Source: a virus. Taken from it: a stretch of 44,290 nt of DNA. The translations under genes were made by a program, and so were the position numbers. This document shows positions 461 through 31,567 of this stretch, piece after piece. The notes under the pieces were generated by a model that was given only the letters and a program-made list of their open reading frames with translations, had not been told where the DNA came from and searched no databases. How positions within the stretch are numbered: the stretch's first letter is position 1; every line of letters starts with the position of its first letter. Location of the stretch: the IMG/VR virus record IMGVR_UViG_3300027851_000004, positions 1 through 44,290 of that record, one strand, 5' to 3'.

Positions 461-2928
461 TGGCCAGCAAATCGTCATCAATCAGATCACTTGCCCGTTC
501 CTTTGCCGGGGGTGAAGTCACGCCTGAATTCTTCGGTCGTGTTGACGACGTGAAGAACCTGACCGGCTTGGGTCGATGCCGTAATTTCCAAGTTTTACCC
601 CACGGCCCTGTAGCGAACCGCACCGGCACGCGCTTCGTCAAAGAGGTGAAAGACAGCACCAGCCACACACGCCTCATTGACTTCGCGTATTCTGATACGC
701 AAACAATGGTGCTTGAACTAGGCCATCAGTATATTCGATTTCACACGATGGGTGGTACGCTGCTTGCGGGGACGCCTGCCGCGTACAACGGCGCCACTGT
801 TTACGCTCTCGCGGACTTGGTGACATCCGGCGGCATACGTTACTACAGCCTCCAAGCAGGCAACACAGGCCACACCCCAGCCTCTAGCCCGACCTATTGG
901 TACGCAATGCCCGCCGACGGCACTTACGAGATACCCACGCCGTACAGCAGCAGCGATATTTTCGACATACATTTCGTTCAGTCTCAGGACGTTTTGTCCT
1001 TGGCGCACCCTAACTACCCACCCGCGGAGTTAAGGCGTTACGGGGCGACGAATTGGCAGCTAGTCAATATCAGCACAGGGTCGACGCTCACGACGCCTAC
1101 CGGCACCTCTGCGGTAGCGACTGTGGCCACCGGCTCCGGGCTTGCCCCGATGTCGTATGTCGTGACAGCAGTCGGCTCGGACGGCGTGGACGAAAGTCTT
1201 GCGAGTACTTCGAGCACCTGCTCCAACAATCTGCTCACAACCGGCAACTACAATACGATAAGCTGGACCACAACCGGGGCCACCCGGTACAACGTGTATA
1301 AGCTTTCAAACGGGCTATACGGTTACATCGGCCAGACAACGAACCTGTCATTTATCGACGACAATATCACGGCGGATATTTCGCGCACGCCGCCAAACAC
1401 GCAAACGCCTTTCGTTGGCGCGGGGAATTACCCGGCTGCTATAAGCTACTATGAACAGCGCCGCGATTTTGGCGGCACGACAAACTTACCCGCGACAATC
1501 TGGATGACAAGATCAGGGACCGAAAGCAACCTGAACTATTCCATCCCCTCCCGGGACAACGACGCGATCAGCTTCCGCATTGCCGCGCGTGACCGCAATA
1601 CAGTCCGTCATTTCGTACCGCTGCTGGACTTGCTTGTGCTTACATCGTCAGGCCTGTGGCGCGTCACTTCCGTGAACTCCGACAGCATCACCCCGACATC
1701 AATCGCGGTAAAGCAGCAGAACAACATCGGCGCGTCAAATGCCCAACCAGTAATTGCTAACGATGCTGTCGTATACGCGGCCAACCGGGGCGGGCACGTT
1801 TGGGCTGCGCGCTATGGCATAGAGCAGACATACAAGTCAAAAGATTTGTCCCTGCGCGCACCACATTTATTCAACAATCGGGCTATCGTCGATATGGCGT
1901 ACGCGCGGGCGCCCTACCCGGTGGTGTTTGCAACCTCTTCAAACGGCCTGTTGCTGGGCATAACTTATGTGCCTGACGAAGAGATAGAAGCTTGGCACTG
2001 GCACGATACTTATACCAATAACGGCGACGCCACGACACCGATCTTCAGTTCGTTCAAATCCGTAACGTGCGTTGCCGAGGGCGATGAAGATGCTGTGTAC
2101 GCTATTGTCGAGCGCGAGATCAACGGTAATACAGTCCAGTACATCGAGCGCTTTGCCAGCCGCAATTTCGAGACGCTGCCCAACGCGTACTTCGTCGACT
2201 GCGGAGTATCCTATGACGAGCCCATCACCATAACCGGTATAACAAAAGCTAACCCGGGTGTTGTAAGCGCGCCAGCCCACGGCCTATCAAATGGTGATCC
2301 TGTCGACATCGACGAAGTGAGTGGCATGGAACAGGTCAACGGGCAACGCTACTACGCTGCGAACGTGACCGGGGGGACGTTTGAACTTGTCGATGAATTC
2401 GGCGTCAACATCAACACGACAAGTTTCACCACATACACCGGCGGTGGTTACGCGCGCCTTGTTCTTAGTGAAGTTATTTCCGGTTTGGATCACCTCGAAG
2501 GCGAAACCGTCGCTGTTCTGGGCAACGGTGCAGTGCAGCCCCAGCAGACTGTCGTAGGCGGCGCCATAACACTGGACGAACCAGCAAGCGTTATCCAGAT
2601 AGGGCTGCCTATTGAGGCTGATATAGAGACCCTGCCTCTGGCTTTCGAAGCGGAGGCTTTTGGTCAGGGTCGGCGTAAAAACGTCAACCAAGTCTGGCTG
2701 CGCGTGTACCAATCAAGCGGGATATTCGCGGGGCCTAGCTTCGATAACCTCACCGAGAAAAAGCAGCGCACTACTGAGCCTTACGGCACCCCACCGGTAC
2801 TGAAGGATGAAGAGTTGTCCCTGAAAGTTCAAGGTAAATGGGGTGACAGCGGGACCGTATGTATCCGCCAGTCTGATCCTCTGCCTCTCACAATTGTCTC
2901 CATGACTTTGGAGGTCTCCGTTGCGTGA
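460..2928 (+). CDS. Tail tubular protein B / nozzle (T7 gp12-like)
   Basis: This 822-residue protein is close in length to T7 gp12 (794). The family forms the tail nozzle through which DNA and internal proteins leave the virion. The N-terminus (Ser-Phe-Ala-Gly-Gly-Glu near residues 14-19, then the Arg-Asn-Phe and Arg-Thr-Gly-Thr segments) follows the pattern of this family. Residues about 208-310 look like a fibronectin-type insertion, with a Tyr-Asn-Val-Tyr-Lys strand. Residues about 590-668 match the small beta domain (His-Gly-Leu-Ser-Asn-Gly-Asp, then Thr-Phe-Glu-Leu) often seen in phage nozzle proteins. I chose the ATG at 460 because it overlaps the previous stop; an in-frame ATG at 442 would add six residues. 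The gene overlaps the next one by eight bases. Confidence 0.9.
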   Translation: MASKSSSIRSLARSFAGGEVTPEFFGRVDDVKNLTGLGRCRNFQVLPHGPVANRTGTRFVKEVKDSTSHTRLIDFAYSDTQTMVLELGHQYIRFHTMGGTLLAGTPAAYNGATVYALADLVTSGGIRYYSLQAGNTGHTPASSPTYWYAMPADGTYEIPTPYSSSDIFDIHFVQSQDVLSLAHPNYPPAELRRYGATNWQLVNISTGSTLTTPTGTSAVATVATGSGLAPMSYVVTAVGSDGVDESLASTSSTCSNNLLTTGNYNTISWTTTGATRYNVYKLSNGLYGYIGQTTNLSFIDDNITADISRTPPNTQTPFVGAGNYPAAISYYEQRRDFGGTTNLPATIWMTRSGTESNLNYSIPSRDNDAISFRIAARDRNTVRHFVPLLDLLVLTSSGLWRVTSVNSDSITPTSIAVKQQNNIGASNAQPVIANDAVVYAANRGGHVWAARYGIEQTYKSKDLSLRAPHLFNNRAIVDMAYARAPYPVVFATSSNGLLLGITYVPDEEIEAWHWHDTYTNNGDATTPIFSSFKSVTCVAEGDEDAVYAIVEREINGNTVQYIERFASRNFETLPNAYFVDCGVSYDEPITITGITKANPGVVSAPAHGLSNGDPVDIDEVSGMEQVNGQRYYAANVTGGTFELVDEFGVNINTTSFTTYTGGGYARLVLSEVISGLDHLEGETVAVLGNGAVQPQQTVVGGAITLDEPASVIQIGLPIEADIETLPLAFEAEAFGQGRRKNVNQVWLRVYQSSGIFAGPSFDNLTEKKQRTTEPYGTPPVLKDEELSLKVQGKWGDSGTVCIRQSDPLPLTIVSMTLEVSVA

Positions 2929-3415
2929 TGTTTACACCCAGAAATATCTTCGCCCTGTGCAAGAGGGCGATGTTGAATTTATCGCGGCTAATATCCGCGA
3001 CCAAGATCGCGATGAAGTCCGCGCCAAATGCGGCCCGCTACGTTCTATCGCAGGTGTTATCCGTTCATCACTACTGGATACCCCTGAGGCCGTCACAGCG
3101 ATCTCACCCACAACCGGGGAGCCCATTGCCATTATCGGCGCCGCAGCGCCCACGCTGCTCGGCGGCGGCATTGGAAAGCCTTGGATGCTTGGCACCCCCG
3201 GCGTCGCTACAGCGCCCCGAGGGTTCATCCAAGGGGGAAGAGCGTACGTGCAAAGGATGCTCGATCTGTTCCCGGAGGGGCTCGAGAATTACGTCGACGC
3301 CCGGAACTCGGTGAGCATACGGTGGCTACGAGCGCTTGGGTTTAAGATGCACCCAGCGCAGCCTTATGGGGAAGAACAAAGGCTGTTTCACAGGTTCACG
3401 CTCGGGTGTGCATAA
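2921..3415 (+). CDS. Internal virion protein A-like (T7 gp13 family)
   Basis: The 164-residue product matches the gp13/DUF2833 group of podovirus proteins, distant relatives of GNAT acetyltransferases. The visible signature is the Trp-Met-Leu-Gly-Thr-Pro segment, a Phe-Ile-Gln-Gly-Gly-Arg turn, Asn-Tyr-Val-Asp-Ala-Arg-Asn, and the closing Trp-Leu-Arg-Ala-Leu-Gly-Phe. In T7, gp13 is needed for proper particle assembly and is a minor virion component. The start is a TTG that overlaps the nozzle gene's end, with GGAG five bases upstream; the first in-frame ATG comes much later and would remove conserved sequence. The order nozzle-gp13-gp14-gp15 supports the call. Whether acetyltransferase activity remains cannot be judged here. 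Confidence 0.8.
   Translation: MRDVYTQKYLRPVQEGDVEFIAANIRDQDRDEVRAKCGPLRSIAGVIRSSLLDTPEAVTAISPTTGEPIAIIGAAAPTLLGGGIGKPWMLGTPGVATAPRGFIQGGRAYVQRMLDLFPEGLENYVDARNSVSIRWLRALGFKMHPAQPYGEEQRLFHRFTLGCA
3406..3414 (+). promoter_or_regulatory. Candidate late-gene control motif, copy 1
   Basis: GTGTGCATA lies across the stop of the gp13-like gene, 56 bases before the start of the next gene. The same nine bases occur at 14985 and 40426, with a one-base variant at 34507, each just before a late gene on the same strand. An AT-rich TATAAAA follows here at 3424. No consistent -10 box is seen among the four copies, so the role as promoter is inferred only from position. Confidence 0.4.
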
Positions 3416-3461: not shown

Positions 3462-4025
3462 ATGTGCACAGGTCAAGCAGTTCTTTCATCACAAATCGCA
3501 GGCGCTATGACCTCAGCAGTTGGGGCATGGGGCGAAGCTTCAGCTAAGAAAACCAACTACAACACCACAGCCAATCTGGCTGACATATCCGCGCGGTCTA
3601 GCGAACTTACCGCTCAATCAGCGTTATTCAGCGGCCAGCGCGAAGAGCAGGCGTCGCGCCTCGAGACTGCCAATCTGAAAGGCAAACAGATAACCAGCAT
3701 GGCGGGCAACGGCATTGCTCTTGATAGCGATACCGCTAACCGTATCCTGACTTCGACCGATGTGATCGGTGAGGTTGATGCCAACACCATCAATGCCAAC
3801 GCCGCGCGTTCAGCTTGGGGCTACCGGATGGAGCGCACACAGCACGAGAACGAAGCAATTACGGCGCGCGCCCAAGCGAAGAACATAAACCCCGGGCGTT
3901 CAGCCTTAACGTCTTTGATCAATTCTTCCGGTGACGTGGCGGCGACGTGGTACAAACTCGGCAAAGCCGGTGATTTAAAAGGCTCCATTTACGGGAGCGT
4001 ATACGACAAATTGAACAAGAGGTAA
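3462..4025 (+). CDS. Internal virion protein B-like (T7 gp14 family)
   Basis: The product has 187 residues; T7 gp14 has 196. It is rich in Ala, Ser, Gln and Glu, with long helical stretches, a short Met-Cys-Thr-Gly N-terminus and a Gly-Asn-Gly-Ile-Ala segment near residue 86. These features are typical of the ejected core protein that forms the outer-membrane part of the DNA-translocation channel. AGGA nine bases before the ATG serves as ribosome binding site. It sits between the gp13-like and gp15-like genes exactly as in T7-type phages. The assignment rests on length, composition and order more than on a sharp motif. Confidence 0.75.
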   Translation: MCTGQAVLSSQIAGAMTSAVGAWGEASAKKTNYNTTANLADISARSSELTAQSALFSGQREEQASRLETANLKGKQITSMAGNGIALDSDTANRILTSTDVIGEVDANTINANAARSAWGYRMERTQHENEAITARAQAKNINPGRSALTSLINSSGDVAATWYKLGKAGDLKGSIYGSVYDKLNKR

Positions 4026-4028
4026 GCT

Positions 4029-6236
4029 GTGCCGGTTGTCCCAACACGCGATAACTTTAGTGTTAAGCCGACGACGGCGCCTTCGTCGAACATCCGTAAC
4101 ACGATGTCCCCCGAAGGTGCAGCCGCGGGCGCGGCTCAGGTATCCGCGATGGGCGATGCCATGCAGCGTACCGCCCAGCGCGGCGCAGAAATCCGTCTCG
4201 ATATTATGGACGAGGCTAACCAACTTCGTGTTGCTGATGCTGTCAACCAAGCCCGCGAACACGCGATACGATTGCAGCACGACCCAAAAGAGGGCTACAC
4301 ACAATTCAAAGGCTACGACGCTCTTAATCGCCCCGATGGCGTCCCTTTAGGTGACGAGTACGCGGGCAAACTTGAAACAACCGTCGGGTCTATAGCCGCC
4401 ACGCTCGGCAACGACGCCCAGAAAAACGCTTTCGCGGCAGCCTCCGGTAAATTGCTATCTGATTTTAAAAACGACGCTGTGCGTTATGAGGGCTCCGAGT
4501 TCCGTGACTGGTCGATGTCGGTGCGTGAAGGCACAATAAAAAACCAGACGCAAAATATCGCGTTGAACTACGACAACCCCGAAAAGGTAAATGAAAGTCT
4601 GGCCAGCATACGCGCGTCGGCAATTGATCTTGCCAGACAACAAGGTAAATCCGCGGAGGAAATGACTTCGCTTTCGCGCGATGCTATGAGTAAAGGGCAC
4701 ACCATTGTTATTGAAACGGCAGTGGCGAAAGGAAAAATACGATATGCAGATGATTACTTTAAAAAAGCTGCCAAGGATATGGCTCCTGACGATATTCTTC
4801 GGGGCCACGCTCTTCTCACTGGTGAACTTGACAAAGTAGTGGCGGTCGAAACTGCGACGAACGTGATGCAATCACAACGCAGTAACATTGACACCCCAGA
4901 CAGCGACCGCGCATTTAACATTGCTGTCGGGGCTGAGAGTTCAGGTCAGCACTTTGGGGGCGCGGGTAGCGTTGCTGGGCCAAACGAGCCCACGACATCC
5001 GCAGCGGGCGCCATCGGTATCGCTCAGGTCATGCCAGCCACAGGGCCCGAGGCTGCGCAAATGGCCGGGTTGGTCTGGGACGAGAACAAATTCAAGAACG
5101 ACCCGGCGTACAACCACGCTCTCGGTAAAGCGTATTTCACCCAGCAGCTAAAAGACTTCGGCGGTAACATCGCCAAAGCTTATGCCGCGTACAATGCCGG
5201 GCCGCAGCGCTTAAAGGACGGCATTGCTAAGGCCGAGGCCGCAGGTGAGCCCGAAAATTGGGTGAACTACATGCCGAAGGAAACGCAGGCGTATGTTTCG
5301 CGCAACATGAAAGCTTATAAGGCCGGGCAGGGTGTAAACGAGCGCCCGACCCTGACGGCGGTGCAGGATCAGGTTCGTGCGGCCCTCGGCCCTGACGCCG
5401 ATCCTACGCGCGTCCGTCTCGCTTTAGATGAAGCCGAGCGCCAATATACCGACGTAACAAAATCCATAGCGCAACGTGATGAACAACGTGTTGCAAACGC
5501 CATGCGCGCGCTGGTCGAAAATGGCGGCGATTACAAATCCCTGCCTGCGGATATGCGTGCAAATCTACCGCCGGATAAAATCACTTCGGTCATGGATTTT
5601 GCAAAACGCATTAGCAATGGCGACAACACCACCGATCTCTCCCTTTATAACAAATTTGAACAAAACCCCCGGGAACTGGCTGCGCTCACCGACGATCAGT
5701 TTGTTGCCTTGCGCCAATCGTTCAGCGACACAGATTTCAAACACTTCTCGCAGGTTCGCGCAAGCATCCTGAACGGCAACCAACCGGAGGCACAGAACCC
5801 GGGGAGCCTTAACACTGGGGCGATTAAAACCACATTGGACGACCGCCTTGCTCAGTTAGGCATCAACCCATCGCCCAAAAACACTGACGTAAAAGCTAAC
5901 GCGCGTGTCGGCACGATCCGCCAATTTGTGAACAACGAAATAGCGAAGGCCCAAGCGCAGGCTGGCAAGAAGTTTACGGACGCAGAAACATCATCTTTCA
6001 TCGACAGCCTCTTCTCCAAGAAGGCCATATTCGACGGTTATATTTCCGACAGCGAAGGGCCGATGCTGAAGATGAAAACCGGTGACATCCCGCCAATTAC
6101 CAAAAAAGCCTTGGTAAACGCCTATAAAAAACAGTATGGTATGGAACCGTCAGACGGCGATCTGATGCAGATTTATTGGGCGCATTTGGTTAGGATTGGC
6201 CAGATCGCTTCAGCGCAAACCCAAGGTGTCAACTAA
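4029..6236 (+). CDS. Internal virion protein with lytic transglycosylase domain (gp15-like)
   Basis: The 735-residue product is close in length to T7 gp15 (747) and lies in the gp15 position. Residues about 297-420 form a soluble lytic transglycosylase domain: the catalytic Glu is E303 in an Ala-Glu-Ser-Ser context, followed by Gly-Ala-Ile-Gly-Ile-Ala-Gln-Val-Met-Pro near 327 and Ala-Tyr-Asn-Ala-Gly near 388. Such a domain cuts peptidoglycan locally so that the ejected channel can cross the wall. In T7 it sits in gp16, so here it is on a different protein. The rest is largely helical and charged. The start is GTG, four bases after the previous stop, with GAGG about seven bases upstream. The stop overlaps the next ATG (TAATG). 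Confidence 0.88.
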   Translation: MPVVPTRDNFSVKPTTAPSSNIRNTMSPEGAAAGAAQVSAMGDAMQRTAQRGAEIRLDIMDEANQLRVADAVNQAREHAIRLQHDPKEGYTQFKGYDALNRPDGVPLGDEYAGKLETTVGSIAATLGNDAQKNAFAAASGKLLSDFKNDAVRYEGSEFRDWSMSVREGTIKNQTQNIALNYDNPEKVNESLASIRASAIDLARQQGKSAEEMTSLSRDAMSKGHTIVIETAVAKGKIRYADDYFKKAAKDMAPDDILRGHALLTGELDKVVAVETATNVMQSQRSNIDTPDSDRAFNIAVGAESSGQHFGGAGSVAGPNEPTTSAAGAIGIAQVMPATGPEAAQMAGLVWDENKFKNDPAYNHALGKAYFTQQLKDFGGNIAKAYAAYNAGPQRLKDGIAKAEAAGEPENWVNYMPKETQAYVSRNMKAYKAGQGVNERPTLTAVQDQVRAALGPDADPTRVRLALDEAERQYTDVTKSIAQRDEQRVANAMRALVENGGDYKSLPADMRANLPPDKITSVMDFAKRISNGDNTTDLSLYNKFEQNPRELAALTDDQFVALRQSFSDTDFKHFSQVRASILNGNQPEAQNPGSLNTGAIKTTLDDRLAQLGINPSPKNTDVKANARVGTIRQFVNNEIAKAQAQAGKKFTDAETSSFIDSLFSKKAIFDGYISDSEGPMLKMKTGDIPPITKKALVNAYKKQYGMEPSDGDLMQIYWAHLVRIGQIASAQTQGVN

Positions 6237-9200
6237 TGCCTTTCGAAGACAAAATTTCTGACGAAGACGCAGCCGCAGCCGTAACCAGTTTTTCTTCAGG
6301 CGCAAAGCCAGTTGATCCAAACAGGATGCGCGCGACCGTAGCCACGGCCCTCGATACCAACCCAGACCAACACGCGGAGGCGTTGAACCTCTCGCGCAAA
6401 ACTGGTGTGCCGGTATCTTCGGTGCTGGCGGATAAAGACAACGTAGCTAAGAGCGCGAAGCTAGATAGTTTTGACTTCAAGGCGTTTGCCAAAACCAACC
6501 CGGTCACGACTGAACTTATGTCGGACGAGCAGTTCGCAAAGCTGGCCGTCGACGACATTGACAACATGGGCGCTGTTGAGACCGCGTTCTCCAAACTGAA
6601 AAACGTAGGTACGGCTCTCCGCGTAGGTGTAGGCCCAAGCCTGAACGTCGGTGTGCTCGGCGTCCTCGAAAACAACGCCGCCATAAAGAAACAACTAGGT
6701 TTCTCCTTTATACCTTCGCTTAACCCTATGATGGGCCGGGCGGCGGAAGTGCGCGGGCAAGCGGATCAAGAAGCCGAAGCATACAGTGCGCTGCGCAAGT
6801 ACGAGCAGAAGCGCGCTGATACACTGATGGCGCCTATCCTCAACGACGCAGGTCCTAAAGAGCGCGCAGTTTATTCAGGTATCACCAGTGTCGGCCAGCA
6901 AGCCCCCGGTATTATTGCTTCAGTCGTAACGCGCAACCCTGAATTTGCGCTAGCCGCAGCCGGGGCCACCACGTTCGGTACCTCCGCCGCGGAGGGCATG
7001 GACCGAGGTCTGTCGCCAGTTCAGGCTATGGGCTACGGCCTGCGCGATGGTTTTGTTGAAGTGGGTACTGAGTTGCTGCCTGTGACGAAATTGGTCGGCG
7101 ATCTGAAAGCTGGGGCTCCGCTGCTCAAGACGTTGTTGCACCAAGCGGCGACGGAAGTCCCCGGTGAACTGATGGCGACCACGCTTCAGAACTTCAACGA
7201 GTGGGCTACGCTAAACCCAGACGAACCTTTCTCCAAGTATCTGGACAGCCTCCCCGGCGATCTGCGCGACACTGTGATCTCAACGGTGGTAGGTGTGGGC
7301 GCCCAGACCGGCGCCATGCACGTTACGAACAAGGCAATTAATTCAGTCACGCAGCGCAGCCAGCGCGCGCAGTGGTCACAGGACGCGCACGATGTTTTAG
7401 CTAAAATTCAGCAGCTTGCGTCAGTCTCCAAGGTTCTGGAACGCAATCCTCAAAGCTTCGAGACGTTCATCAAGAACAACACCGAAGGCACCGAGATCGA
7501 AGATGTGTATATCGATCCGAAAGAATTGCAACAAAGCGGTATAGATGTAAACGCATTGGCGGCGATGTCACCATCGGTCGCCAAACAGATTGCGGCAGCC
7601 AACGAAACCGGGTCCTTGCTCCGTATCCCGGTGTCGGAATACGCGACAAACGTCGCTGCTACTGATTTGGGCCAGCCGTTGCTCGACGTGCTGAAGACCG
7701 ATCCGTTTGCCATGTCGCGTAACGAAGCCACAAACTTCATGCAGACACAATCGGCTGAACTGGAAAGCCAAGTCGAAAAACAATTACAAGGTCGCCACCT
7801 CGACGACCAAGCGCAGCAATCGCGCTCCGTTGTCGAGAAGAACATTCTCGGCCAACTTCAGACCTCAGGCCGCTTCACGCCTGACGTAAACAATTTATAC
7901 TCCAAGCTGATGTCGAATTTCTATCACGTCATCGGTTCGCGCGCAGGCCAGACGGCTGAGCAGATGTTTGCGAAATACCCGGTCGGTATTCAAGCTGAGG
8001 GGGCGCAGGCGACTGATTTGTCGAAAGCATTTTTCGATACACCCCCGGTAGATAACCAAGGCAACATCACATTGGATCACTGGTCCAGCGAACGTGGGTT
8101 GTCCATGGCTGACCCAAAACAGTGGGGCAAGAACAAGACTTTCCTGCCTAAAGACGAGCGCAATCGTATTGGCGTCGCCCCCGGGCGCACATACTTCGGC
8201 ATCGCTTCTAATCAGGATGGCGGCTACCGTCCTGAAAGCGGGTTGGGCTCAGTACGCTACCGCGCGTCGATCCCCGCTTCGAAATTGTATGATATGGCTT
8301 CTGACCCCGAGAACCTGAAAGCGCGGGGCCGGGAGTTGTTGGCGCAAAAAGCCACACAACTGGACGGCAAATCTCTTTACGAACACTTGATACAAGACGC
8401 CGGGTACTCAGGCTATTGGATAAAGGGCCCGGCGGGTTTAACCGCTGCGGTCTTCGATCCTTTGTCGTTGGCACCCTACACAGCGGACCGAGGAGACCTC
8501 ACCCCCGGTAACGTCACAAAGCTGTTGACCAAGAGCAACTGGGCTATTTTGACGGCTGAGAACCCAGCGGCACAAGCTACTTCTCCCGAAGAAAACAAGC
8601 AACGCAACGCCGCCTTGGCTGAATATCTCAAACAACAAGGCATAGACTTTGAGCCCGTGGTCGGCCAGTACGGCAACCGCGAAAATTCATTCTTCTTGTT
8701 TGGCGTCAACCCTGAGGAAGCGAACGCTATCGGGAAGCAATTCGGGCAAGAAAGCGTACTCATTCCTCAAGGGCTGTTGTATAGCGACATGACCCTCGAA
8801 CGGGCAACTGGTTTGACGGAGCATAAACCTAACGATCTGCCGGATGACTTCTACACGGTCATCCCGGCTACCGGTGCAGCCTTTACCGTAGATATAAATT
8901 TTGAAAACCGAGTTCCTTTTGGTGAATTGGCGCAAAGCGCTACCAACAACACCCCCTACCGGGATGGCCTTGGTTTCTACAGCGCAGTCGAGAAAGCCGT
9001 GTTAGATATGCGCACGACAGGGTGGGAGCCATCCCGGAAGTCGTTACTTGACGATAAACAACGTGAAGAACTTGTCTCTCTGCGTGGTCTTGTTGCGTCT
9101 ACCAAAGACCCAAAATACGCGCGCCTGCTCGAGTTGGCCGCTGTGGAGCGCAAAGAAAAGGGCGTCGCTAAAGGCTCTGAATTATGGGCTAAAATACAGA

Positions 9201-12200
9201 AGCTTCCAGTCAAGAAAGAAGAACTCCAATGGCTCGGCCTTGAAGAGTATCTTCAATCGCAACCTGATTTTACCCGTGAGGAAGTCAGCGACTTCATCCG
9301 ACAAAACGGTGTCCGGGTAGAAGAGATTGTGGCCGATCAAGAGATCGACGATAAGCTAGGCGATTGGAGCGATCTGGCTTCTATTGAAGACGATGACTAC
9401 ATCAACAGCGAACAGGAATACTGGGAAGAACAGATGACCGAAGACGGTGATCAATCTGACCTTTATTTTGACGCAGTAGATAGAGTTGTTAGAAAGCGCG
9501 AAACTTTTATCGAAGACAAAATAGGCGACAACACCGGTAATCAGGACTGGCTCGACAAGGCCCGTAAGGTAGCCATCGACGAATTTGAAGATGAAGTGAG
9601 CACTCAGGTCAGCGCCATAGCCTATGACAACGCATACCAAAGCTACTGGGACAATCCTATCAAAGAAGCCGTCAACTCTAATGGCGATGTTATCCGCGGC
9701 AATGATGATTTAGGGTACTCCCTAAACGGCGACTTCTTAGACGCTTACAGCTTTAACGAAGCGCAAGTTAAAGCTTCGGAGAAACTCGGCGATAACGGTG
9801 AATACGTGCCTGAGGACAGCCCTTACGCTAAGCGCTGGGAGCAATACGTAACTGACGGCAGGTTCACCAATTACCGGGAGCGCAAACTTACCCTCCCCGG
9901 TATAGAGAACGAATTCTTTAACAACACCCATTTCGACGACGCGAACATCGTGGCCTTCACGCGCGAAACCGACCGCGTATTTACTGTCGCGCAGGATGCG
10001 CCCACGGAAGAGCAAGCTGCTGCTTTGAAGTCGTTAGAAGATAAATTGGCTACAGATTTTTCCAAAGAAAAAGAGCAGGAAGCTTACGACACTTCAGCCG
10101 CGGCGGTTCGGGAAAGCTATCTCCTCGCGGGCCTGCCGGTGGATGAAGAAGCCATATCAAACTACGGTGGCTGGCGCTTTATCGCTGAAGAGAATATGCT
10201 GCCGGTTGAAGAGAAAGCTTTAGCAGCGTCTAAAGAAGCTGGGGGTGTGAACGGAACTTATGAAGCGCAATTGAAAGCTACAGAAGACCGCGTACGCATT
10301 AGGAGCACGTCCCAAGATTACCAGTTCTTCTTCTATGCGAAACAGAAATTAGAACGCGACATAGAAAAATTAAAAATCGAAAGCACCAAACGCAGTGTCA
10401 AAGCTTTCTTCATTGATGAATTCCAATCCGACTGGCACCAGCATGGGCGCCAGCAAGGCTATTCCACCGGGTTGGACGCCGGTGAAGTGGAAGCTTTGGC
10501 GCAGGAAAAACTGGCTCTTGCTAGGAGCGCGTCCGCGGAAATGTTTGCGGAGTACCAACACGGGCCGCTCTTCGACGAAGGCGTCAATAAAGGCGTTGCC
10601 GCCATTGAAGGTCTGTTTGCGTTGCGCGATCAAGTCAAAGAATACCTAACCGGCGATACTGCTACGCACTCTGATGGCAGCCCGTTGTCTGCGGATACCA
10701 TCGAAGCGAATATGCAGCGTTTTGGTAAAACCGTATTCGACATCGTGTCCTCACTCCGTAAACCTGAGAAGCTGCAAGGTACGTTGATCGAAAAAGCTTT
10801 TACGGCTGATGAAGCTAAAGCAGCCCTAGATGTCTTCGCCAAGAATACAAACAAAGGGCGCTACATACTTGATCTGCTGGATGAAGCAGACGGTAAATTT
10901 GACCAAGCAAAAGCCGAACGTAACGGCGTACCAGACGCCCCATTCAAAGGCGATAGCTGGATTGCCCTCGGGCTCAAGCGCGCGCTCACCAGCGCCGTGG
11001 AAGAAGGCTACGCACGCTTTGCTTGGGCGGACGCCGGTGTACTATCCGAAAGATGGAGCGAAAGGTACCGCACCCTGTATGAAACACAGTACGATACCAA
11101 GATGCCATCAATCGTCAAACGCTTGACCAGCATTGCGCCGGTTCACGTTGAAGCGGATGAAGACGCTACCCTTGAAGGCTCCGGGTACTGGTACATAGAT
11201 ATAACCCCTGAGTTAGCTGCTAAGGTGAAGAACGAAGGGATGGCGCTGTTCCAAAAGCAACGCGGCTCGTTCAACCCACAGACATCGATGATAACACTGC
11301 TCAACGCTGCGGACCTTTCTACGTTCCTGCATGAAGCCGGTCACTTCTTCTTAGAGACCATGAATAAAATGGCGCAGGACCCAGCCTCTCCACAGCAGAT
11401 CAAAGATGATATGAACTTGGCGCTCAAGTGGATGGGCGCCAGCGATTTGGCTGACTGGAATTCCCGCACGCTCGAACAACAGCGCGAAGGCCACGAGAAA
11501 TTCGCCCGTGGTTTCGAAGCTTATCTGTTCGAGGGCAAAGCCCCGAACATTGAACTCGCGGGCGTGTTCTCGCGTTTCCGTGATTGGCTGGTCAGTATTT
11601 ACAAAGAAATTCGCAATCTGAAAGCTGATCTAAACCAAGACATTCGCGGCGTGTTTGACCGTCTGGTTGCCACCGACGAAATGATCAAAGAAAGCGAAAC
11701 GCTGGCCAATTTCCAACCGCTGTTCGCGACGATGGAAGAAGCCGGTATGAACGCCGACGAATGGGCGTTGTACCAGCAGCTTGGTTTGTCGTCCACCGAG
11801 CAGGCTAAGGAAAATCTACAATCCCGTGGGCTACGCGATATGAAGTGGTTGTCGAACGCGAAGAGCCGGGTGTTGAAAGAAATGCAACGCAGCGTCGAGG
11901 GCAAACGCAAAGCGATCCGTCGTCAAGTTACCGAAGAAGTGATGGGCGAACCAATAAACCAAGCGCGCCAATTCATACGCCGTGGTATCGGGGCGAACGG
12001 TCTGCGCGTTGAAGGTCCCCACCGCATCGACGTTGACGCTCTGCGCGAAATGTACGGCGACGGCCCGGATGCACTGTGGCGCGCGCTTGACAGCAAGTAC
12101 GGCAAATACGGCGTGCTGGGTCAGAATGGCGTTCACCCAGATGCGTTGGCCGATCAGTTCGGCTTCTCTTCCGGTGACGAACTGATGAAGGCTCTGGCTT

Positions 12201-14977
12201 CGGCTGAAAATCCGAGCGACCGTATAGCTGGTTTAACGGATCAGCGTATGCTCGAACAGTATGGCGACATCGCTGATCCAAAATCCCTAGAGCGCGCGGC
12301 TGAAGCAGCCATCCACAACGACGCGCGCATACGCTTCGTCGCCAGTGAAATGAACGCACTGCAACGCGCCACCGGTAAACGCCAAATACTTAACAAAGCG
12401 GCCAAGCAATTTGCCGAGCAAATGATCGGTCGCTTGCGCGTACGTGATCTGAAGCCCTCCCGGTATCAGGCCGCTGAAGTGAAAGCTGCACGCGCGGCTT
12501 CCGAAGCCATGCGTAAGAACGATCTGGATACCGCAGCTATTGAGAAGCGCAATCAACTTGTGCAGATGCAGGCCGCTAAGGCTGCGCTCAACGCTCAAGA
12601 AGAAATCGAAAAAGCGCTCACTTATCTGAAGAAATTCAACAAGGTTTCGAAGACGCTTGACCCCGCGTACCGCGACCAGATTGACGCTTTGCTTGAACGC
12701 TTCGATCTCAAACCTGCCAGCCTGAAGGCTATCGATAAACGCAAGTCGTTGGTTGACTGGGTTGCCTCCCTTGAAGAACAGGGCTTGGAACCAGACGTGC
12801 CGCAGGAAATCCTCGACGCCGCCAACCGCAAGCATTACAAGGATATGACCGTTGAGGAAATGCGCGGGCTGATCGATACGATCCGCCAGATCGAACACCT
12901 CGGTCGTCTCAAAAACAAATTGCTTACCGCCAAACGCGAACGTGATTTCGCGACGGCAGTTGACGGCTTGGTAACATCAATCGACGCGAACAGCAAAGGC
13001 CGCACCGCCGATAACGTGACGCGCCCGACAAAATGGGACGGCTTCAAGCGCCTGTTCAAAGGCTATCTCGCCCAACACCGGAAGCTTGCCAGCTTCGCGC
13101 GTCAGATGGACGGCGTTAAGGACGGCGGGCAGATGTGGGAAGTCTTCATCCGGTCGATGAACAATGCAGGCAACATGGAAGCGGTAAAGCGCGAACAAGC
13201 AACGATGCAACTCGCGACAATTGCCGCGCCGTTGATGCAAGGCAAACAGAAGATGGGCGGCAAGGGAATTTTCTTCGACAAGATCGGGCGCAGCCTGAAC
13301 CGTGAAGAGCGTCTCTCTATCATCCTGAACTTGGGTAACGAAAGCAACAAGCAGCGCTTGCTCGATGGCTTTAACTGGACCGAGGATCAACTCCAACAAG
13401 TTTTGGATACGATCACCCCAGAAGAAGCGAACTTTGCGCAGGCGGTTTGGGATCACTTTGAAAGCTACCGCCCAGATATCGCCGCCAAAGAAAAACGTAT
13501 CTACGGTAAAGAGCCGGAGTGGATCGAACCGTCGCCCATTACTTTAGGCGGCGTCGACCTGCGCGGCGGCTATTACCCGGTAAAATACGACCACCGGCAA
13601 AGCGGCATAGCCGAGCAGCACGATATGGCTGAGGTTGCCAGACAGCAACTGCGCGGCGCTTACACCAGCAGCACTACGCGTCGCAGCTTTACCAAGTCAC
13701 GCGCCGATGAAGTCAAAGGGCGTCCACTGATGTTGACGATGGATAGCCTGTATGCCGGGGTAAACGAGGTCATCCACGATTTGTCTTGGCACGAGTGGTT
13801 GATCGACGCGAACCGCTTGATGCGCAACAAGGCTCTCGACCAAGCAATCCGCGGCACGTATGGCGCTGAAGTCGTGCAGCAAATGAAAGAAGCTATCAAG
13901 GACATCGCCGCCGGTGAAATGCCGTCGGGTGGGGCGTTTGAGAAAACTATGGCTAACCTCCGCGCAGGCGCAACCGTTGCGGGTTTAGGTCTTAAAATCT
14001 CGACCGCCTTGATGAACATAACCGGTATCACGCAGTCGTTTGTACGCGTCGGCCCCCGTTGGGTAATCCAAGGGCTTGATGCTTGGGCGCGCAGCCCTGT
14101 GCAACTGGTCACAGATGTCTACGGCAAATCAGATTTCATGCGGCTACGCGGTAAAACGATGCAGCGCGAAATAAACGAAGTTCAAAGTATGCTCCGCGAT
14201 AAATCGAAAACGCGCGCGGCCATAGACCGCATTTCGTTCTTGCCGTTGACATACACCCAAATGGTGATCGATATGCCGACATGGTGGGGTGCTTACCAAA
14301 AAGCACTAGCTGCTGGCGAAGTTGAAGAACGCGCCGTGGCTTTGGCCGATCAATCTGTGCTCGACGCCCAAGGCGGGGGGCAGGTCAAGGACTTGGCTGG
14401 TATACAACGTGGCAACCCGATACTCAAATTGTTCACGACTTTCTACGGCTACTTCTCAACGACGTGGCAATTGACGGTTGAGCAGACATCGAAGACCAAC
14501 TTTAAAGACCCTCTCGATGTCATGCGTCTCGCCGGTGATTACTTCCTGCTGTACGTTGTCCCAGCCACATTAGGCACGATTGTCCACGGCATCGCGTCTG
14601 GTGATGACGACTGGGCCGACCCGGAGAAATTGGCAAAGCGCTACGCACACGAGCAAATCAGTTTCGCATTTGGTATGCTGATCGGGGCGAGAGAAACCAG
14701 CGCTGCTGTTGAAAAAGCTTTGGGCGTCAACCAATACGACTTCTCGTACGGGGGCCCCGCTGGCCTCCGGTTCTTTAGCGAACTGGACAAACTCGGTTCC
14801 CAAATTGGCCAAGGCGAATTCGATACCGCCCTGCGCCGCAGCCTTGTGAACGTGGCTGGGGTCACGCTGCGCTTACCTTCGACACAAATAAATAAAACGC
14901 TGGATGGCGCGGTGGCTATGATGAATGGTGATACCGCTAACCCAGCAAGCCTAATATTTGGCCCGCCTGAGCAGTAG
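6236..14977 (+). CDS. Giant polyvalent internal virion protein with zincin-like motif
   Basis: One open frame of 2913 residues makes up a fifth of the genome and sits where T7 has gp16 (1318 residues). Segments in order: a Gly/Ala-rich, partly hydrophobic N-terminus (about 1-350); a region near 610-690 resembling ADP-ribosyltransferase-like domains of phage polyvalent proteins; a DUF3293-like region near 765-860; very acidic sequence near 1030-1330; the Phe-Ile-Asp-Glu-Phe-Gln-Ser-Asp-Trp-His segment near 1391 and Ile-Thr-Pro-Glu-Leu near 1656, both characteristic of large polyvalent proteins; a zinc peptidase motif His-Glu-Ala-Gly-His at 1699-1703 with a downstream Glu in Gly-Phe-Glu-Ala-Tyr-Leu; long charged helices (about 1830-2280); and a C-terminal polyvalent-associated region near 2560-2760. 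It is probably ejected with the DNA. Enzyme activities are inferred from motifs only. Confidence 0.85.
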   Translation: MPFEDKISDEDAAAAVTSFSSGAKPVDPNRMRATVATALDTNPDQHAEALNLSRKTGVPVSSVLADKDNVAKSAKLDSFDFKAFAKTNPVTTELMSDEQFAKLAVDDIDNMGAVETAFSKLKNVGTALRVGVGPSLNVGVLGVLENNAAIKKQLGFSFIPSLNPMMGRAAEVRGQADQEAEAYSALRKYEQKRADTLMAPILNDAGPKERAVYSGITSVGQQAPGIIASVVTRNPEFALAAAGATTFGTSAAEGMDRGLSPVQAMGYGLRDGFVEVGTELLPVTKLVGDLKAGAPLLKTLLHQAATEVPGELMATTLQNFNEWATLNPDEPFSKYLDSLPGDLRDTVISTVVGVGAQTGAMHVTNKAINSVTQRSQRAQWSQDAHDVLAKIQQLASVSKVLERNPQSFETFIKNNTEGTEIEDVYIDPKELQQSGIDVNALAAMSPSVAKQIAAANETGSLLRIPVSEYATNVAATDLGQPLLDVLKTDPFAMSRNEATNFMQTQSAELESQVEKQLQGRHLDDQAQQSRSVVEKNILGQLQTSGRFTPDVNNLYSKLMSNFYHVIGSRAGQTAEQMFAKYPVGIQAEGAQATDLSKAFFDTPPVDNQGNITLDHWSSERGLSMADPKQWGKNKTFLPKDERNRIGVAPGRTYFGIASNQDGGYRPESGLGSVRYRASIPASKLYDMASDPENLKARGRELLAQKATQLDGKSLYEHLIQDAGYSGYWIKGPAGLTAAVFDPLSLAPYTADRGDLTPGNVTKLLTKSNWAILTAENPAAQATSPEENKQRNAALAEYLKQQGIDFEPVVGQYGNRENSFFLFGVNPEEANAIGKQFGQESVLIPQGLLYSDMTLERATGLTEHKPNDLPDDFYTVIPATGAAFTVDINFENRVPFGELAQSATNNTPYRDGLGFYSAVEKAVLDMRTTGWEPSRKSLLDDKQREELVSLRGLVASTKDPKYARLLELAAVERKEKGVAKGSELWAKIQKLPVKKEELQWLGLEEYLQSQPDFTREEVSDFIRQNGVRVEEIVADQEIDDKLGDWSDLASIEDDDYINSEQEYWEEQMTEDGDQSDLYFDAVDRVVRKRETFIEDKIGDNTGNQDWLDKARKVAIDEFEDEVSTQVSAIAYDNAYQSYWDNPIKEAVNSNGDVIRGNDDLGYSLNGDFLDAYSFNEAQVKASEKLGDNGEYVPEDSPYAKRWEQYVTDGRFTNYRERKLTLPGIENEFFNNTHFDDANIVAFTRETDRVFTVAQDAPTEEQAAALKSLEDKLATDFSKEKEQEAYDTSAAAVRESYLLAGLPVDEEAISNYGGWRFIAEENMLPVEEKALAASKEAGGVNGTYEAQLKATEDRVRIRSTSQDYQFFFYAKQKLERDIEKLKIESTKRSVKAFFIDEFQSDWHQHGRQQGYSTGLDAGEVEALAQEKLALARSASAEMFAEYQHGPLFDEGVNKGVAAIEGLFALRDQVKEYLTGDTATHSDGSPLSADTIEANMQRFGKTVFDIVSSLRKPEKLQGTLIEKAFTADEAKAALDVFAKNTNKGRYILDLLDEADGKFDQAKAERNGVPDAPFKGDSWIALGLKRALTSAVEEGYARFAWADAGVLSERWSERYRTLYETQYDTKMPSIVKRLTSIAPVHVEADEDATLEGSGYWYIDITPELAAKVKNEGMALFQKQRGSFNPQTSMITLLNAADLSTFLHEAGHFFLETMNKMAQDPASPQQIKDDMNLALKWMGASDLADWNSRTLEQQREGHEKFARGFEAYLFEGKAPNIELAGVFSRFRDWLVSIYKEIRNLKADLNQDIRGVFDRLVATDEMIKESETLANFQPLFATMEEAGMNADEWALYQQLGLSSTEQAKENLQSRGLRDMKWLSNAKSRVLKEMQRSVEGKRKAIRRQVTEEVMGEPINQARQFIRRGIGANGLRVEGPHRIDVDALREMYGDGPDALWRALDSKYGKYGVLGQNGVHPDALADQFGFSSGDELMKALASAENPSDRIAGLTDQRMLEQYGDIADPKSLERAAEAAIHNDARIRFVASEMNALQRATGKRQILNKAAKQFAEQMIGRLRVRDLKPSRYQAAEVKAARAASEAMRKNDLDTAAIEKRNQLVQMQAAKAALNAQEEIEKALTYLKKFNKVSKTLDPAYRDQIDALLERFDLKPASLKAIDKRKSLVDWVASLEEQGLEPDVPQEILDAANRKHYKDMTVEEMRGLIDTIRQIEHLGRLKNKLLTAKRERDFATAVDGLVTSIDANSKGRTADNVTRPTKWDGFKRLFKGYLAQHRKLASFARQMDGVKDGGQMWEVFIRSMNNAGNMEAVKREQATMQLATIAAPLMQGKQKMGGKGIFFDKIGRSLNREERLSIILNLGNESNKQRLLDGFNWTEDQLQQVLDTITPEEANFAQAVWDHFESYRPDIAAKEKRIYGKEPEWIEPSPITLGGVDLRGGYYPVKYDHRQSGIAEQHDMAEVARQQLRGAYTSSTTRRSFTKSRADEVKGRPLMLTMDSLYAGVNEVIHDLSWHEWLIDANRLMRNKALDQAIRGTYGAEVVQQMKEAIKDIAAGEMPSGGAFEKTMANLRAGATVAGLGLKISTALMNITGITQSFVRVGPRWVIQGLDAWARSPVQLVTDVYGKSDFMRLRGKTMQREINEVQSMLRDKSKTRAAIDRISFLPLTYTQMVIDMPTWWGAYQKALAAGEVEERAVALADQSVLDAQGGGQVKDLAGIQRGNPILKLFTTFYGYFSTTWQLTVEQTSKTNFKDPLDVMRLAGDYFLLYVVPATLGTIVHGIASGDDDWADPEKLAKRYAHEQISFAFGMLIGARETSAAVEKALGVNQYDFSYGGPAGLRFFSELDKLGSQIGQGEFDTALRRSLVNVAGVTLRLPSTQINKTLDGAVAMMNGDTANPASLIFGPPEQ

Positions 14978-15038: not shown

Positions 15039-16679
15039 ATGATCAACAACGAAGACCGCGTAACAGAACCCGCTCTCGGCACAGGCGCTAACACCGAATT
15101 CGATTTCGGTTTTAAAGTCTTTGCTGCTGACGAAGTGGTGGTGGTTGTCACTGATACCGATGGTAACGAAACGACCCTCGACGCGGCTGATTATACCGTC
15201 GCCCTAAACACTAATCAGGACGTAGCCCCGGGTGGTGTGGTCACACTCGATACTGCGCTAACACTCGACTATATCCTCGTCATTACGAGCGCCATCCCAA
15301 CCACCCAAAAGGTAAAGATAACCAACCTCGGCGGGTTCTTCCCCAGCGTGCTCAACAACGCGCTCGATAAGGTAGTCGCTTTGATCCAACAAACGCGCGG
15401 CCCTTTGAGCCGCGCTCTGAAAATACCTATCTCTGACGGCACCGACTTAATCACGGAACTGCCAACAAAAACGCTCCGCGCTTTGAAGGTAATCGGCTTT
15501 GATGCCGCCGGTAACTTGGTCGTCAGCGAAACCGATCTTATCGCCATGGACACTGCGTTGGCTACCGCGGTAAGCACCACCACCACCAACGCCGCAGCCA
15601 CCGCGGCTGATGTCGTCCTTACCCACGCTGATGTCGTCCTTACCCACGCTGATGTCGTCCTTACCCACGCTGATGTCGTAGCAGCGGACGCGGCTGCTGC
15701 TACAGCCATTGCTGCCTCAGGCACCGTGAAAGTTACAGCAGCAGATACCACCTCTTCGGTGCTCGACAGCGCCGTTGCTGTTTCCGGTTTGGTCGGCAAA
15801 ACCGTAACCAACCCCGGCGCGAACGAGACTTTGACGCTGAGCGTACCGGTTGCGTCGCAAGCCGAAGCTGAAGCAGGCACCCTCAACACTGTTGCGCTTA
15901 CACCGTTGCGTGGGGCCCAAGCCCTTGCGGCTTTGGTACCGAAAACGCAATTCTATCTGGCGGCGTCGATAAACGCCAACGCCCTGACCATCACCTTAAA
16001 AGCCGGTAACACTGTGGACTTCCGTTCGTCTTCACTGACAAGCGGTGTGGTCAACAGGCGCGCGGTAGCTGCGGACGTTTCCGTGGTCGTGTCGTCTGGT
16101 TCTACGCTCGGTACCGTCAACGGTGTGGCCGCGCGTCTAGCCGTATTGGCTATCGACAATGCTGGTACGGTTGAGGTCGCCGTCTGCAATATGAGCGGGG
16201 GCGTGAACCTTGATGAAACTGGCCTTATAAGCACAACTGCGATTAGTGGATCATCAAATAGCGCCACCACAATTTATTCGACCACGGCGCGCACAAACTT
16301 ACCTTACAGAGTTGCAGGCTTTATCGACATCACAGAAACCACGGCAGGCACATGGGCAACCGCACCTACAACTGTTCAAGGTGCAGGGGGCGAGGCTTTT
16401 ACGGCAATGTCGTCAAGTGGGTACGGTCAGAAATGGCAAACCGTAACACGCACTAGCGGCACACCGTATGTCAATGATACAGGTAGACCTATTACAGTGA
16501 TTGCCGGTTACGGCGCAGCCATAACTCAAACATTTACAGCCGTGGTCAATGGTGTCACCGTCGCCTCATGTGTGACTGTTGCTAACAACAGCGGAAGCAC
16601 GACAATACCTATACCGCCCGGCTCAACTTACACGATGACTGTTACCTCAGGCGCTTTAACTTGCGTGGAGTTGCGATGA
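15039..16679 (+). CDS. Tail fibre protein
   Basis: The 546-residue product begins with a T7 gp17-type N-terminal domain (about residues 1-150: Phe-Asp-Phe-Gly-Phe, Tyr-Thr-Val near 50, and the Leu-Asn-Asn-Ala-Leu-Asp-Lys helix), which docks the fibre to the tail. Residues 190-214 are three perfect copies plus a partial copy of the heptad Ala-Asp-Val-Val-Leu-Thr-His, suited to a trimeric coiled coil. The C-terminal part (about 300-546) is Ser/Thr/Gly/Ala-rich beta structure ending in a Thr-Gly-Arg-Pro-Ile domain, as in receptor-binding fibre tips. AGGA lies nine bases before the ATG. The stop overlaps the next ATG. The receptor cannot be predicted. Confidence 0.85.
   Translation: MINNEDRVTEPALGTGANTEFDFGFKVFAADEVVVVVTDTDGNETTLDAADYTVALNTNQDVAPGGVVTLDTALTLDYILVITSAIPTTQKVKITNLGGFFPSVLNNALDKVVALIQQTRGPLSRALKIPISDGTDLITELPTKTLRALKVIGFDAAGNLVVSETDLIAMDTALATAVSTTTTNAAATAADVVLTHADVVLTHADVVLTHADVVAADAAAATAIAASGTVKVTAADTTSSVLDSAVAVSGLVGKTVTNPGANETLTLSVPVASQAEAEAGTLNTVALTPLRGAQALAALVPKTQFYLAASINANALTITLKAGNTVDFRSSSLTSGVVNRRAVAADVSVVVSSGSTLGTVNGVAARLAVLAIDNAGTVEVAVCNMSGGVNLDETGLISTTAISGSSNSATTIYSTTARTNLPYRVAGFIDITETTAGTWATAPTTVQGAGGEAFTAMSSSGYGQKWQTVTRTSGTPYVNDTGRPITVIAGYGAAITQTFTAVVNGVTVASCVTVANNSGSTTIPIPPGSTYTMTVTSGALTCVELR
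15606..15679 (+). repeat. 21-bp tandem repeat in the fibre gene
   Basis: Three perfect 21-base units (15606-15626, 15627-15647, 15648-15668) are followed by an 11-base partial unit. Each encodes one coiled-coil heptad, so changes in copy number would lengthen or shorten the fibre shaft in frame. The perfect identity at DNA level suggests recent duplication or slippage. Confidence 0.95.
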
Positions 16680-31312: not shown

Positions 31313-31560
31313 TCCCTCAAGATCAGTACCTTATCGGGCAAGAACTGCACCGGCGCTTACGCGCAGAACTGGACATAGTTGCGGCGCGTTTCTTAGCTGA
31401 ATACGGCCCGCGTATCGGAGTGGGTGCCAGCATCATCACCTACGGCGTGTTGTCAGACCTCGCGGAATATATCGATGCCCATGTTACGCAACCGGGGCAG
31501 AAATCTCTTCGAGCAATGTCAGACGAAATCCGCCGCGCCGCCTCCAAAACCCAACACTGA
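31309..31560 (+). CDS. Hypothetical helical protein, 83 residues
   Basis: The ATG overlaps the previous stop (ATGA). The product is helical, with Leu-His-Arg-Arg-Leu-Arg-Ala-Glu-Leu and a Gly/Ile/Val-rich central segment. It lies eight bases before the primase-helicase gene and may be an accessory factor, but nothing in the sequence shows this. Confidence 0.65.
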   Translation: MIPQDQYLIGQELHRRLRAELDIVAARFLAEYGPRIGVGASIITYGVLSDLAEYIDAHVTQPGQKSLRAMSDEIRRAASKTQH

Positions 31561-31567
31561 GAGTACC

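What the first reader, a model, noticed from the sequence alone, without database searches (positions are those of the whole stretch)
6236..14977. 2913-residue polyvalent protein replaces the gp16 position
One gene uses a fifth of the genome and combines an ADP-ribosyltransferase-like region, a DUF3293-like region, a zinc peptidase motif (His-Glu-Ala-Gly-His at 1699-1703) and regions typical of large polyvalent phage proteins. Placed after gp14- and gp15-like genes, it is probably ejected into the cell with the DNA. It may deliver several enzymes that disarm the host before any phage gene is expressed.
Basis: partly seen in the sequence, partly recalled or inferred. Interest (0 to 1): 0.82.

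Follow-up and report, generated by a model that had tools for sequence, protein, structure and literature searches.

The report
Phage ejection protein with swappable enzyme cargo
A giant phage protein, probably shot into the bacterium together with the phage DNA, has fixed ends around an exchangeable middle; here the middle carries what looks like an enzyme that destroys S-adenosylmethionine, the cofactor that several bacterial anti-phage defences depend on.

Summary
In detail: one 2913-codon ORF (6236-14977), HEAGH at 1699-1703, a DUF3293 domain, and placement after internal-virion and transglycosylase genes. It is the Bbp10 family (phrog_9880) of BPP-1-like podophages, and a polyvalent protein in the sense of Iyer et al. 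2017. Three things change the reading.

(1) The zinc motif is in the conserved chassis, not the cargo. An N-module (~560 aa) and a zincin+C-module (~1270 aa) are shared by 72 distinct full-length relatives. All big length variation (9-2048 aa) lies in one slot between them. Slots can be nearly empty and are swapped between close relatives (nuclease-like, ADP-ribosyltransferase, acetyltransferase, RelA/SpoT).

(2) The window's DUF3293 cargo is structurally a phage-T3-type SAM lyase: best PDB match T3 SAM lyase, Z 14.1 over 122 residues. The three residues strictly conserved among SAM lyases (Gly, Glu, Gln) are invariant in 16/16 DUF3293 sequences, which points to a virion-borne anti-restriction/BREX enzyme.

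(3) The next ~770 aa look like an interrupted GNAT fold (suggestive). The region called ADP-ribosyltransferase is a separate, unnamed family with only weak ART similarity.

Virion presence, ejection and enzyme activity are inferred, not shown. A new variant of a known kind.

The parts
2921..3415 (+). internal virion protein gene (phrog_308)
   Evidence: phrog_308 E 5.5e-34; overlapping TTG/GTG starts, exact start not settled
3462..4025 (+). internal virion protein gene (phrog_418), counterpart by position of BPP-1 bbp12
   Evidence: phrog_418 E 2.4e-18; synteny with L002
4029..6236 (+). virion transglycosylase (SLT) gene, counterpart of BPP-1 bbp11; its stop overlaps the start of the big gene (TAATG)
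   Evidence: PF01464 E 2.2e-13; phrog_10475 6.8e-116; overlap read
6236..14977 (+). 2913-aa polyvalent chassis-plus-cargo protein, Bbp10/phrog_9880 family
   Evidence: (phrog_9880 1469 bits)
6236..8035 (+). conserved N-module, aa 1-600 (LPD22 at aa 33-127 = 6332-6616)
   Evidence: 36% identical to Bbp10 17-623; present in 72 distinct full-length relatives; Pfam LPD22
8003..11260 (+). variable cargo slot, aa 590-1675 (1087 aa here; 9-2048 aa in relatives)
8060..8485 (+). cargo 1: 'art2' domain, aa 609-750 (invariant H615); ADP-ribosyltransferase-like only weakly
   Evidence: family of 19 in A7 with invariant H, S, G, R, E, Y residues; hhalign to ART-PolyVal E 0.002; no Pfam match
8510..8890 (+). 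cargo 2: DUF3293 = SAM-lyase-like domain, aa 759-885
   Evidence: DUF3293 2.6e-16; PF23780 2.8e-5, below cut-off; AF2 pLDDT 89.3; T3 SAM lyase 8bb1 Foldseek E 1.7e-4, Z 14.1
8663..8689 (+). SAM-lyase active-site residues G810-x-Y812 and E816-x-S818 (= Svi3-3 G56-x-Y58, E69-x-S71)
   Evidence: G, E, S invariant 16/16, Y 15/16; register from hhalign; residue roles from PMC7877911
8747..8755 (+). SAM-lyase active-site residues Q838-E839-S840 (= Svi3-3 Q104-E105-S106)
   Evidence: Q 16/16, E 15/16, S 12/16
8951..11254 (+). cargo 3: X module, aa 906-1673, probable GNAT fold interrupted by a long insertion; motif DEFQSDWHQxGRxxGY at 10415
   Evidence: ten relatives, always just upstream of the zincin domain; AF2 pLDDT 69.7; top 22 VIA rows all GNAT-type folds, Z 6.8-9.8
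11255..11875 (+). zincin-type metallopeptidase domain of the chassis, aa 1674-1880
   Evidence: A2: HExxH invariant in 14/14 relatives with invariant H1753, E1754, E1761
11330..11344 (+). HEAGH motif, aa 1699-1703
11876..14977 (+). conserved C-module, aa 1881-2913
   Evidence: 48.6% identical to Bbp10 for aa 1674-2909
15039..16679 (+). tail fibre/spike gene that follows, as in relatives
   Evidence: phrog_1640 E 1.3e-24 over aa 14-131; synteny

Best explanation
The protein is the largest internal (ejection) protein of a BPP-1-like podophage. It has a fixed chassis (N-module, zincin peptidase, long C-module) and one cargo slot placed just before the peptidase. Step 1 (inferred): it is packaged in the head with the two small internal proteins and the transglycosylase encoded just upstream, and threaded into the host with or ahead of the DNA. 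Step 2 (inferred): the zincin domain, next to the slot, cuts the chain and releases the cargo. Step 3 (fold and active-site residues shown computationally; activity inferred): the DUF3293 cargo breaks down S-adenosylmethionine, as phage T3 SAM lyase does, so that SAM-dependent restriction or BREX systems fail while the first phage DNA enters; the art2 and X (GNAT-like) domains modify host proteins. Step 4 (shown by comparison): the cargo is exchanged, reshuffled or lost between relatives while the chassis is kept, as expected for effectors tuned to different host defences.
For: Chassis and slot: 72 distinct full-length relatives have N about 557 aa (sd 33), C about 1271 aa (sd 75), slot 9-2048 aa; slot length explains r2 = 0.97 of total length; five slots are under 40 aa. 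Exchange: L097 and L100 have 99.1/98.6% identical ends but slots of 94 and 1122 aa, differing by an in-frame 3084-bp deletion; BPP-1 and L052 have 78-81% identical ends but PBECR1 versus LPD3 cargo; 50 of 55 pairs with 60-70% identical C-parts have no similarity in the slot. Cargo kinds in 82 slots: ART-PolyVal 24, GNAT about 7, PBECR1/3/5 10, LPD3 5, RelA_SpoT 1. DUF3293: a discrete cassette, absent between art2 and X in L144; order reversed relative to art2 in L022 and L042; 15/16 members match the SAM-lyase Pfam model, best 7.8e-8; AF2 pLDDT 89 with T3 SAM lyase as top PDB hit, Z 14.1 against 6.0 for the best unrelated chain; Gly, Glu and Gln of SAM lyases invariant. Synteny with internal virion and lysozyme genes.
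Against: No virion proteomics or ejection data were found for this family: the BPP-1 cryo-EM paper identified only two capsid bands. SAM lyases form trimers with active sites between subunits, so one domain per chain must meet others after entry. The window's own PF23780 score (24.5 bits) is below the curated cut-off of 28. Related enzymes in the same fold act on SAM-AMP or make other products, so the substrate is not certain. The GNAT and ART readings are weak.
Confidence: 0.68

Rival explanations
1. It is only a structural channel or core protein; the slot holds spacer domains of no catalytic use, and its variation is neutral.
For: Slots can be nearly empty and one was deleted in frame; the C-module is long and conserved; some relatives have a hydrophobic stretch near the C-terminus.
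Against: Recognisable enzyme families recur in the slot; SAM-lyase active-site residues are invariant in 16/16 DUF3293 domains at 29-43% identity to the window's; the fold is a confident enzyme fold.
Confidence: 0.12
2. The cargo is active, but in the producing cell (late in infection) or inside the virion, not in the newly infected cell.
For: The gene lies in the structural cassette, so it should be made late; no ejection data exist.
Against: A precedent of similar size and role is ejected: N4 vRNAP (PMC12633501); the polyvalent class is argued to be injected (PMC5512222). T3 uses its SAM lyase as its first expressed protein (PMC8406200), which suggests value at entry.
Confidence: 0.12
3. The DUF3293 domain degrades a SAM-based second messenger (SAM-AMP of type III CRISPR) or acts on another SAM derivative, so it is an anti-CRISPR rather than an anti-restriction enzyme.
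For: SAM-AMP lyases share the fold and the Glu/Gln residues, and a phage-encoded one is fused to another domain (PMC12255297).
Against: The best structural match is T3 SAM lyase over its whole length (Z 14.1); no SAM-AMP lyase was among the top rows, though that list does not exclude one.
Confidence: 0.2
4. The zincin domain is the effector (a host-directed protease) and the slot domains serve targeting or packaging.
For: Zincin residues are among the most conserved; Iyer et al. allow this role.
Against: The domain is constant while the slot varies, and it sits at the slot's edge in all relatives, which suits self-processing better.
Confidence: 0.15

Closest known systems
Bordetella phage BPP-1 Bbp10 (phrog_9880 family)
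   Same: N-module 36% and zincin+C-module 48.6% identical; same gene order after the internal virion and transglycosylase genes
   Different: Bbp10 is 2052 aa with a ~150-aa PBECR1 nuclease-like cargo; the window has a 1087-aa art2/SAM-lyase-like/X cargo
Polyvalent proteins of phages and conjugative elements (Iyer et al. 2017, PMC5512222)
   Same: Several disparate domains in one chain, LPD domain, zincin metallopeptidase; predicted injection
   Different: The held text of that paper does not mention DUF3293 or SAM lyases; the single fixed slot with empty alleles is quantified here
Phage T3 SAM lyase (SAMase) and Svi3-3
   Same: Fold (Z 14.1 and 5.8-5.9) and the Gly/Tyr/Glu/Gln active-site residues
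   Different: T3 SAMase is a free early protein; here the domain is embedded in a structural-cassette protein
Coliphage N4 virion RNA polymerase (PMC12633501)
   Same: Giant ejected multi-domain protein of about 3500 aa; the N4 vRNAP contains a zincin-type domain according to Iyer et al.
   Different: No RNA polymerase domain was found here; different chassis
Phage P1 Dar proteins
   Same: Head-packaged anti-restriction proteins; DdrB carries a zincin domain
   Different: Separate proteins of a myophage; no SAM-lyase domain reported in what was read

Membership tests
Bbp10 / phrog_9880 large internal protein | Conserved N-module and zincin+C-module | tested here: met
   phrog_9880 1469 bits; alignment with Bbp10; survey of 72
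Bbp10 / phrog_9880 large internal protein | Gene order: internal virion proteins, transglycosylase, this gene, tail fibre | tested here: met
Bbp10 / phrog_9880 large internal protein | Presence inside the virion | not testable with these tools
   no proteomics found; only two capsid proteins were identified for BPP-1 in the paper read
Polyvalent protein (Iyer 2017) | Two or more domains of disparate biochemical type in one chain | tested here: met
   SAM-lyase-like fold plus zincin motif domain; further cargo domains less certain
Polyvalent protein (Iyer 2017) | Injection into the host with the DNA | not testable with these tools
   inferred from position and precedent only
DUF3293 (PF11697) | Score above curated cut-off | tested here: met
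   60.4 bits against 25
SAM lyase (T3 SAMase type, PF23780) | Curated Pfam score (28 bits) by the window's own domain | tested here: not met
   24.5 bits; a relative scores 29.3. Not filed as a PF23780 member
SAM lyase (T3 SAMase type, PF23780) | Fold of T3 SAM lyase | tested here: met
   8bb1_E Z 14.1, rmsd 2.4, 122 aligned; Foldseek prob 1.00
SAM lyase (T3 SAMase type, PF23780) | Strictly conserved Gly56, Glu69, Gln104 (Svi3-3 numbers) | tested here: met
   G810, E816, Q838 invariant in 16/16; register from profile alignment
SAM lyase (T3 SAMase type, PF23780) | SAM cleavage to MTA and homoserine lactone; trimer | not testable with these tools
   needs purified protein
ART-PolyVal ADP-ribosyltransferase (PF18760) | Curated Pfam score in the window's region 603-755 | tested here: not met
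   no match
ART-PolyVal ADP-ribosyltransferase (PF18760) | Distant relation / H-Y-D active site | tested here: inconclusive
   hhalign E 0.002 over 51 columns; invariant H615, but no clear Y and D in register
Zincin metallopeptidase | HExxH plus a downstream Glu | tested here: met
   H1699, E1700, H1703 and E1754, E1761 invariant in 14/14; still HExxH in 20/20 rows of A11
Zincin metallopeptidase | Zincin fold | tested here: inconclusive
   one zincin chain (5d1s) at Z 5.3 over 97 residues in a multi-domain model
GNAT acetyltransferase (X module) | GNAT fold and acetyl-CoA site | tested here: inconclusive
   top 22 VIA rows are GNAT-type, Z 6.8-9.8, but Foldseek best E 0.36 and model pTM 0.43
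T7 gp16 | Match to a gp16 family profile | tested here: inconclusive
   at E 0.01 the only PHROG matched is phrog_9880 (unknown function) and the transglycosylase domain is in the neighbouring gene; gp16 itself was not compared directly

The most novel reading that the evidence does not exclude
A SAM lyase is carried in the virion and injected as an interchangeable cargo domain, destroying the host's SAM (or a SAM-derived alarm molecule) before any phage gene is expressed; the DUF3293 family as a whole is a SAM-lyase-type family that has gone unnamed.
Probability: 0.5. Interest if true: 0.8.

Novelty: new variant of a known kind. Interest (0 to 1): 0.66.

Why it matters
It turns an unknown domain (DUF3293; no paper in the searched open-access library names it) into a testable enzyme. 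It suggests that phages can disarm SAM-dependent defences with an enzyme delivered by the particle rather than made from an early gene. It also shows that the giant proteins of a large podophage group are a fixed delivery chassis with one cargo slot. That gives a simple way to list predicted injected effectors: read whatever lies between the two conserved modules.

Tried and rejected
Sequence search of the whole protein against PDB sequences: nothing. NCBIfam: nothing. X module by tblastn against phage records: nothing. Single-sequence scans of viral contigs found one locus each for the C-module and the art2/DUF3293 region; alignments were needed. A1 against genome contigs: no relative. A joint alignment of art2 and DUF3293 rows was badly placed and was not used. 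A profile of DUF3293 against PDB sequences gave only chance hits, so the SAM-lyase link rests on Pfam, hhalign and structure, not on that search. hhalign DUF3293 against art2 as a negative control: E 0.28. X+zincin model: medium confidence, no Foldseek hit below 0.36. Transmembrane segments by hydropathy: none in the window protein. The 'crystallin beta/gamma', 'lysin' and 'lysis protein' labels on relatives find no support in the Pfam scans made here and look like carried-over annotation. Considered and rejected: that the zinc motif is part of the variable cargo.

Full report
OBSERVATION. The ORF at 6236-14977 is real: 2913 codons, no stop, far beyond chance. HEAGH is at 1699-1703 and is the only HExxH. 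Pfam finds LPD22 (33-127) and DUF3293 (772-841) and nothing else above cut-off. The upstream genes are a tail protein, two internal virion proteins and a transglycosylase. The transglycosylase stop overlaps the big gene's start (TAATG). The rest of the window has a terminase, head-tail adaptor, protease, major head protein, ssDNA-binding protein, DNA polymerase and helicases. This is the gene set of a BPP-1-like podophage.

FAMILY. tblastn finds 112 phage records; the best are Bordetella phages of the BPP-1 type at 44% identity. Against BPP-1 Bbp10 the match is in two blocks, 2-610 (36%) and 1674-2909 (48.6%); 1063 residues in the middle have no counterpart, and Bbp10 has about 150 unrelated residues there. 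PHROG 9880 covers the same family. Gene order is the same in the BPP-1, Caulobacter, Vibrio, Pseudomonas, Xanthomonas, Acinetobacter and Cobetia phages looked at, as far as the fetched stretches reach.

CARGO SLOT. In 72 distinct full-length proteins the N-module is about 557 aa (sd 33) and the part from the zincin domain to the end about 1271 aa (sd 75), while the stretch between them runs from 9 to 2048 aa and explains 97% of the length variance. Five proteins have under 40 aa there. These numbers are not independent, as some relatives are close.

EXCHANGE. L097 and L100 are about 99% identical in both modules, but L097 lacks 3084 bp of L100's slot, in frame, with about 12 bp shared at the junction. 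BPP-1 and L052 are 78-81% identical in both modules, but their slots hold PBECR1 and LPD3. Of 55 pairs with 60-70% identity in the C-part, 50 have no similarity in the slot. Pfam on 82 slots gives ART-PolyVal in 24, then GNAT, DUF7178, LPD3, PBECR5/3/1, MuF_C, DUF3293, LPD23, and single RelA_SpoT and nucleotidyltransferase cases. DUF3293 and art2 occur as art2-DUF3293 in the window and DUF3293-art2 in L022, L042 and the Nostoc phage. In L144 art2 runs straight into X with no DUF3293.

ZINC MOTIF. HExxH is invariant in 14 of 14 aligned relatives, with a downstream H-E and a further Glu also invariant, and is kept in all 20 rows of a wider alignment. It lies in the constant part, directly after the slot. 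Iyer et al. suggest that such domains process the proteins that carry them. Cutting the cargo free is therefore the likeliest role, but this is inference.

SAM LYASE. A DUF3293 sequence from a Flavobacterium phage passes the cut-off of the Pfam SAM-lyase model (29.3 against 28 bits); the window's own domain does not (24.5). Of 16 phage DUF3293 domains, 15 match that model, best 7.8e-8. Profile-profile comparison with the T3 SAMase family gives E 2.2e-4 over 73 colinear columns; an unrelated control gives 0.28. AlphaFold2 gives pLDDT 89.3 and pTM 0.81. The top PDB hits are all T3 SAM lyase (Foldseek E 1.7e-4, prob 1.00; VIA Z 14.1, 122 residues, 2.4 A); the best unrelated chain has Z 6.0 and Svi3-3 Z 5.8-5.9. 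Among predicted viral proteins it matches free S-adenosyl-L-methionine hydrolases of other phages and other polyvalent proteins. Guo et al. (PMC7877911) report three strictly conserved residues in SAMases, Gly56, Glu69 and Gln104, with Tyr58 and Glu105 also at the active site. The window has G810, E816, Q838, Y812, E839; the first three are invariant in 16/16 and the others in 15/16. So the fold and catalytic residues are shown computationally; activity is not.

OTHER CARGO. The X module (about 906-1673) has ten relatives in viral contigs and sits just before the zincin domain in them. Its model is of medium confidence; the top 22 structural rows are all GNAT-type folds, including AHL synthases, with Z 6.8-9.8 and a long insertion in the middle of the fold. 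Foldseek alone finds nothing significant. I treat a GNAT fold as likely but unproven. The art2 domain is a coherent family (19 sequences, invariant H615) with only weak similarity to ART-PolyVal; true ART-PolyVal domains occur beside it in other slots.

MECHANISM AND LIMITS. By position and precedent (N4 vRNAP; polyvalent proteins; P1 Dar proteins) the protein is probably ejected. T3 SAM lyase removes SAM and thereby defeats restriction and BREX. A virion-borne version would act even earlier. Known SAM lyases need a trimer, so several copies must meet after entry. No virion or ejection data exist for this family in what I could read.

VERDICT. It belongs to a known kind (polyvalent, Bbp10-type), so it is not a new category. 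The new content is the fixed cargo slot with empty and swapped alleles, and the assignment of DUF3293 to a SAM-lyase fold with an intact active site.

Noticed in passing
L019, L023-L037 (Flavobacterium elemo-type phages and related contigs): The same SAM-lyase-like DUF3293 domain sits in giant ORFs, about 2000-3900 aa where long enough to tell, that show no match to this chassis; one is annotated 'structural protein'.
   Followed up: partly
L097 and L100: In-frame 3084-bp deletion of cargo with about 12 bp of sequence shared at the junction, in otherwise 95% identical DNA.
   Followed up: partly
window 8510-11254: Cargo DNA has lower G+C (DUF3293 0.524, X 0.504) than the N- and C-modules (0.55), compatible with separate origin.
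   Followed up: no
L007 (Vibrio phage 1.185.O) and L017 (Acinetobacter phage Ab9): A second, smaller gap of about 100-200 aa in the match just after the zincin domain, perhaps a second insertion site.
   Followed up: no
one slot among the 82 of alignment A4: A RelA/SpoT domain occurs as cargo in one relative, a possible injected alarmone enzyme.
   Followed up: no
L010 (Limnohabitans phage DC33, PQ492659.1): Record taxonomy says Inoviridae although it is a 39-kb podophage-like genome with this protein.
   Followed up: no
L002, L005, L006, L009, L011: Relatives carry misleading product names (crystallin motif, lysis protein, lysin) for this protein.
   Followed up: partly
window 26031-27386 (-) and 31424-33790 (+): A DUF2800/PD-(D/E)XK-like protein and a VapE-like helicase/primase.
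   Followed up: no
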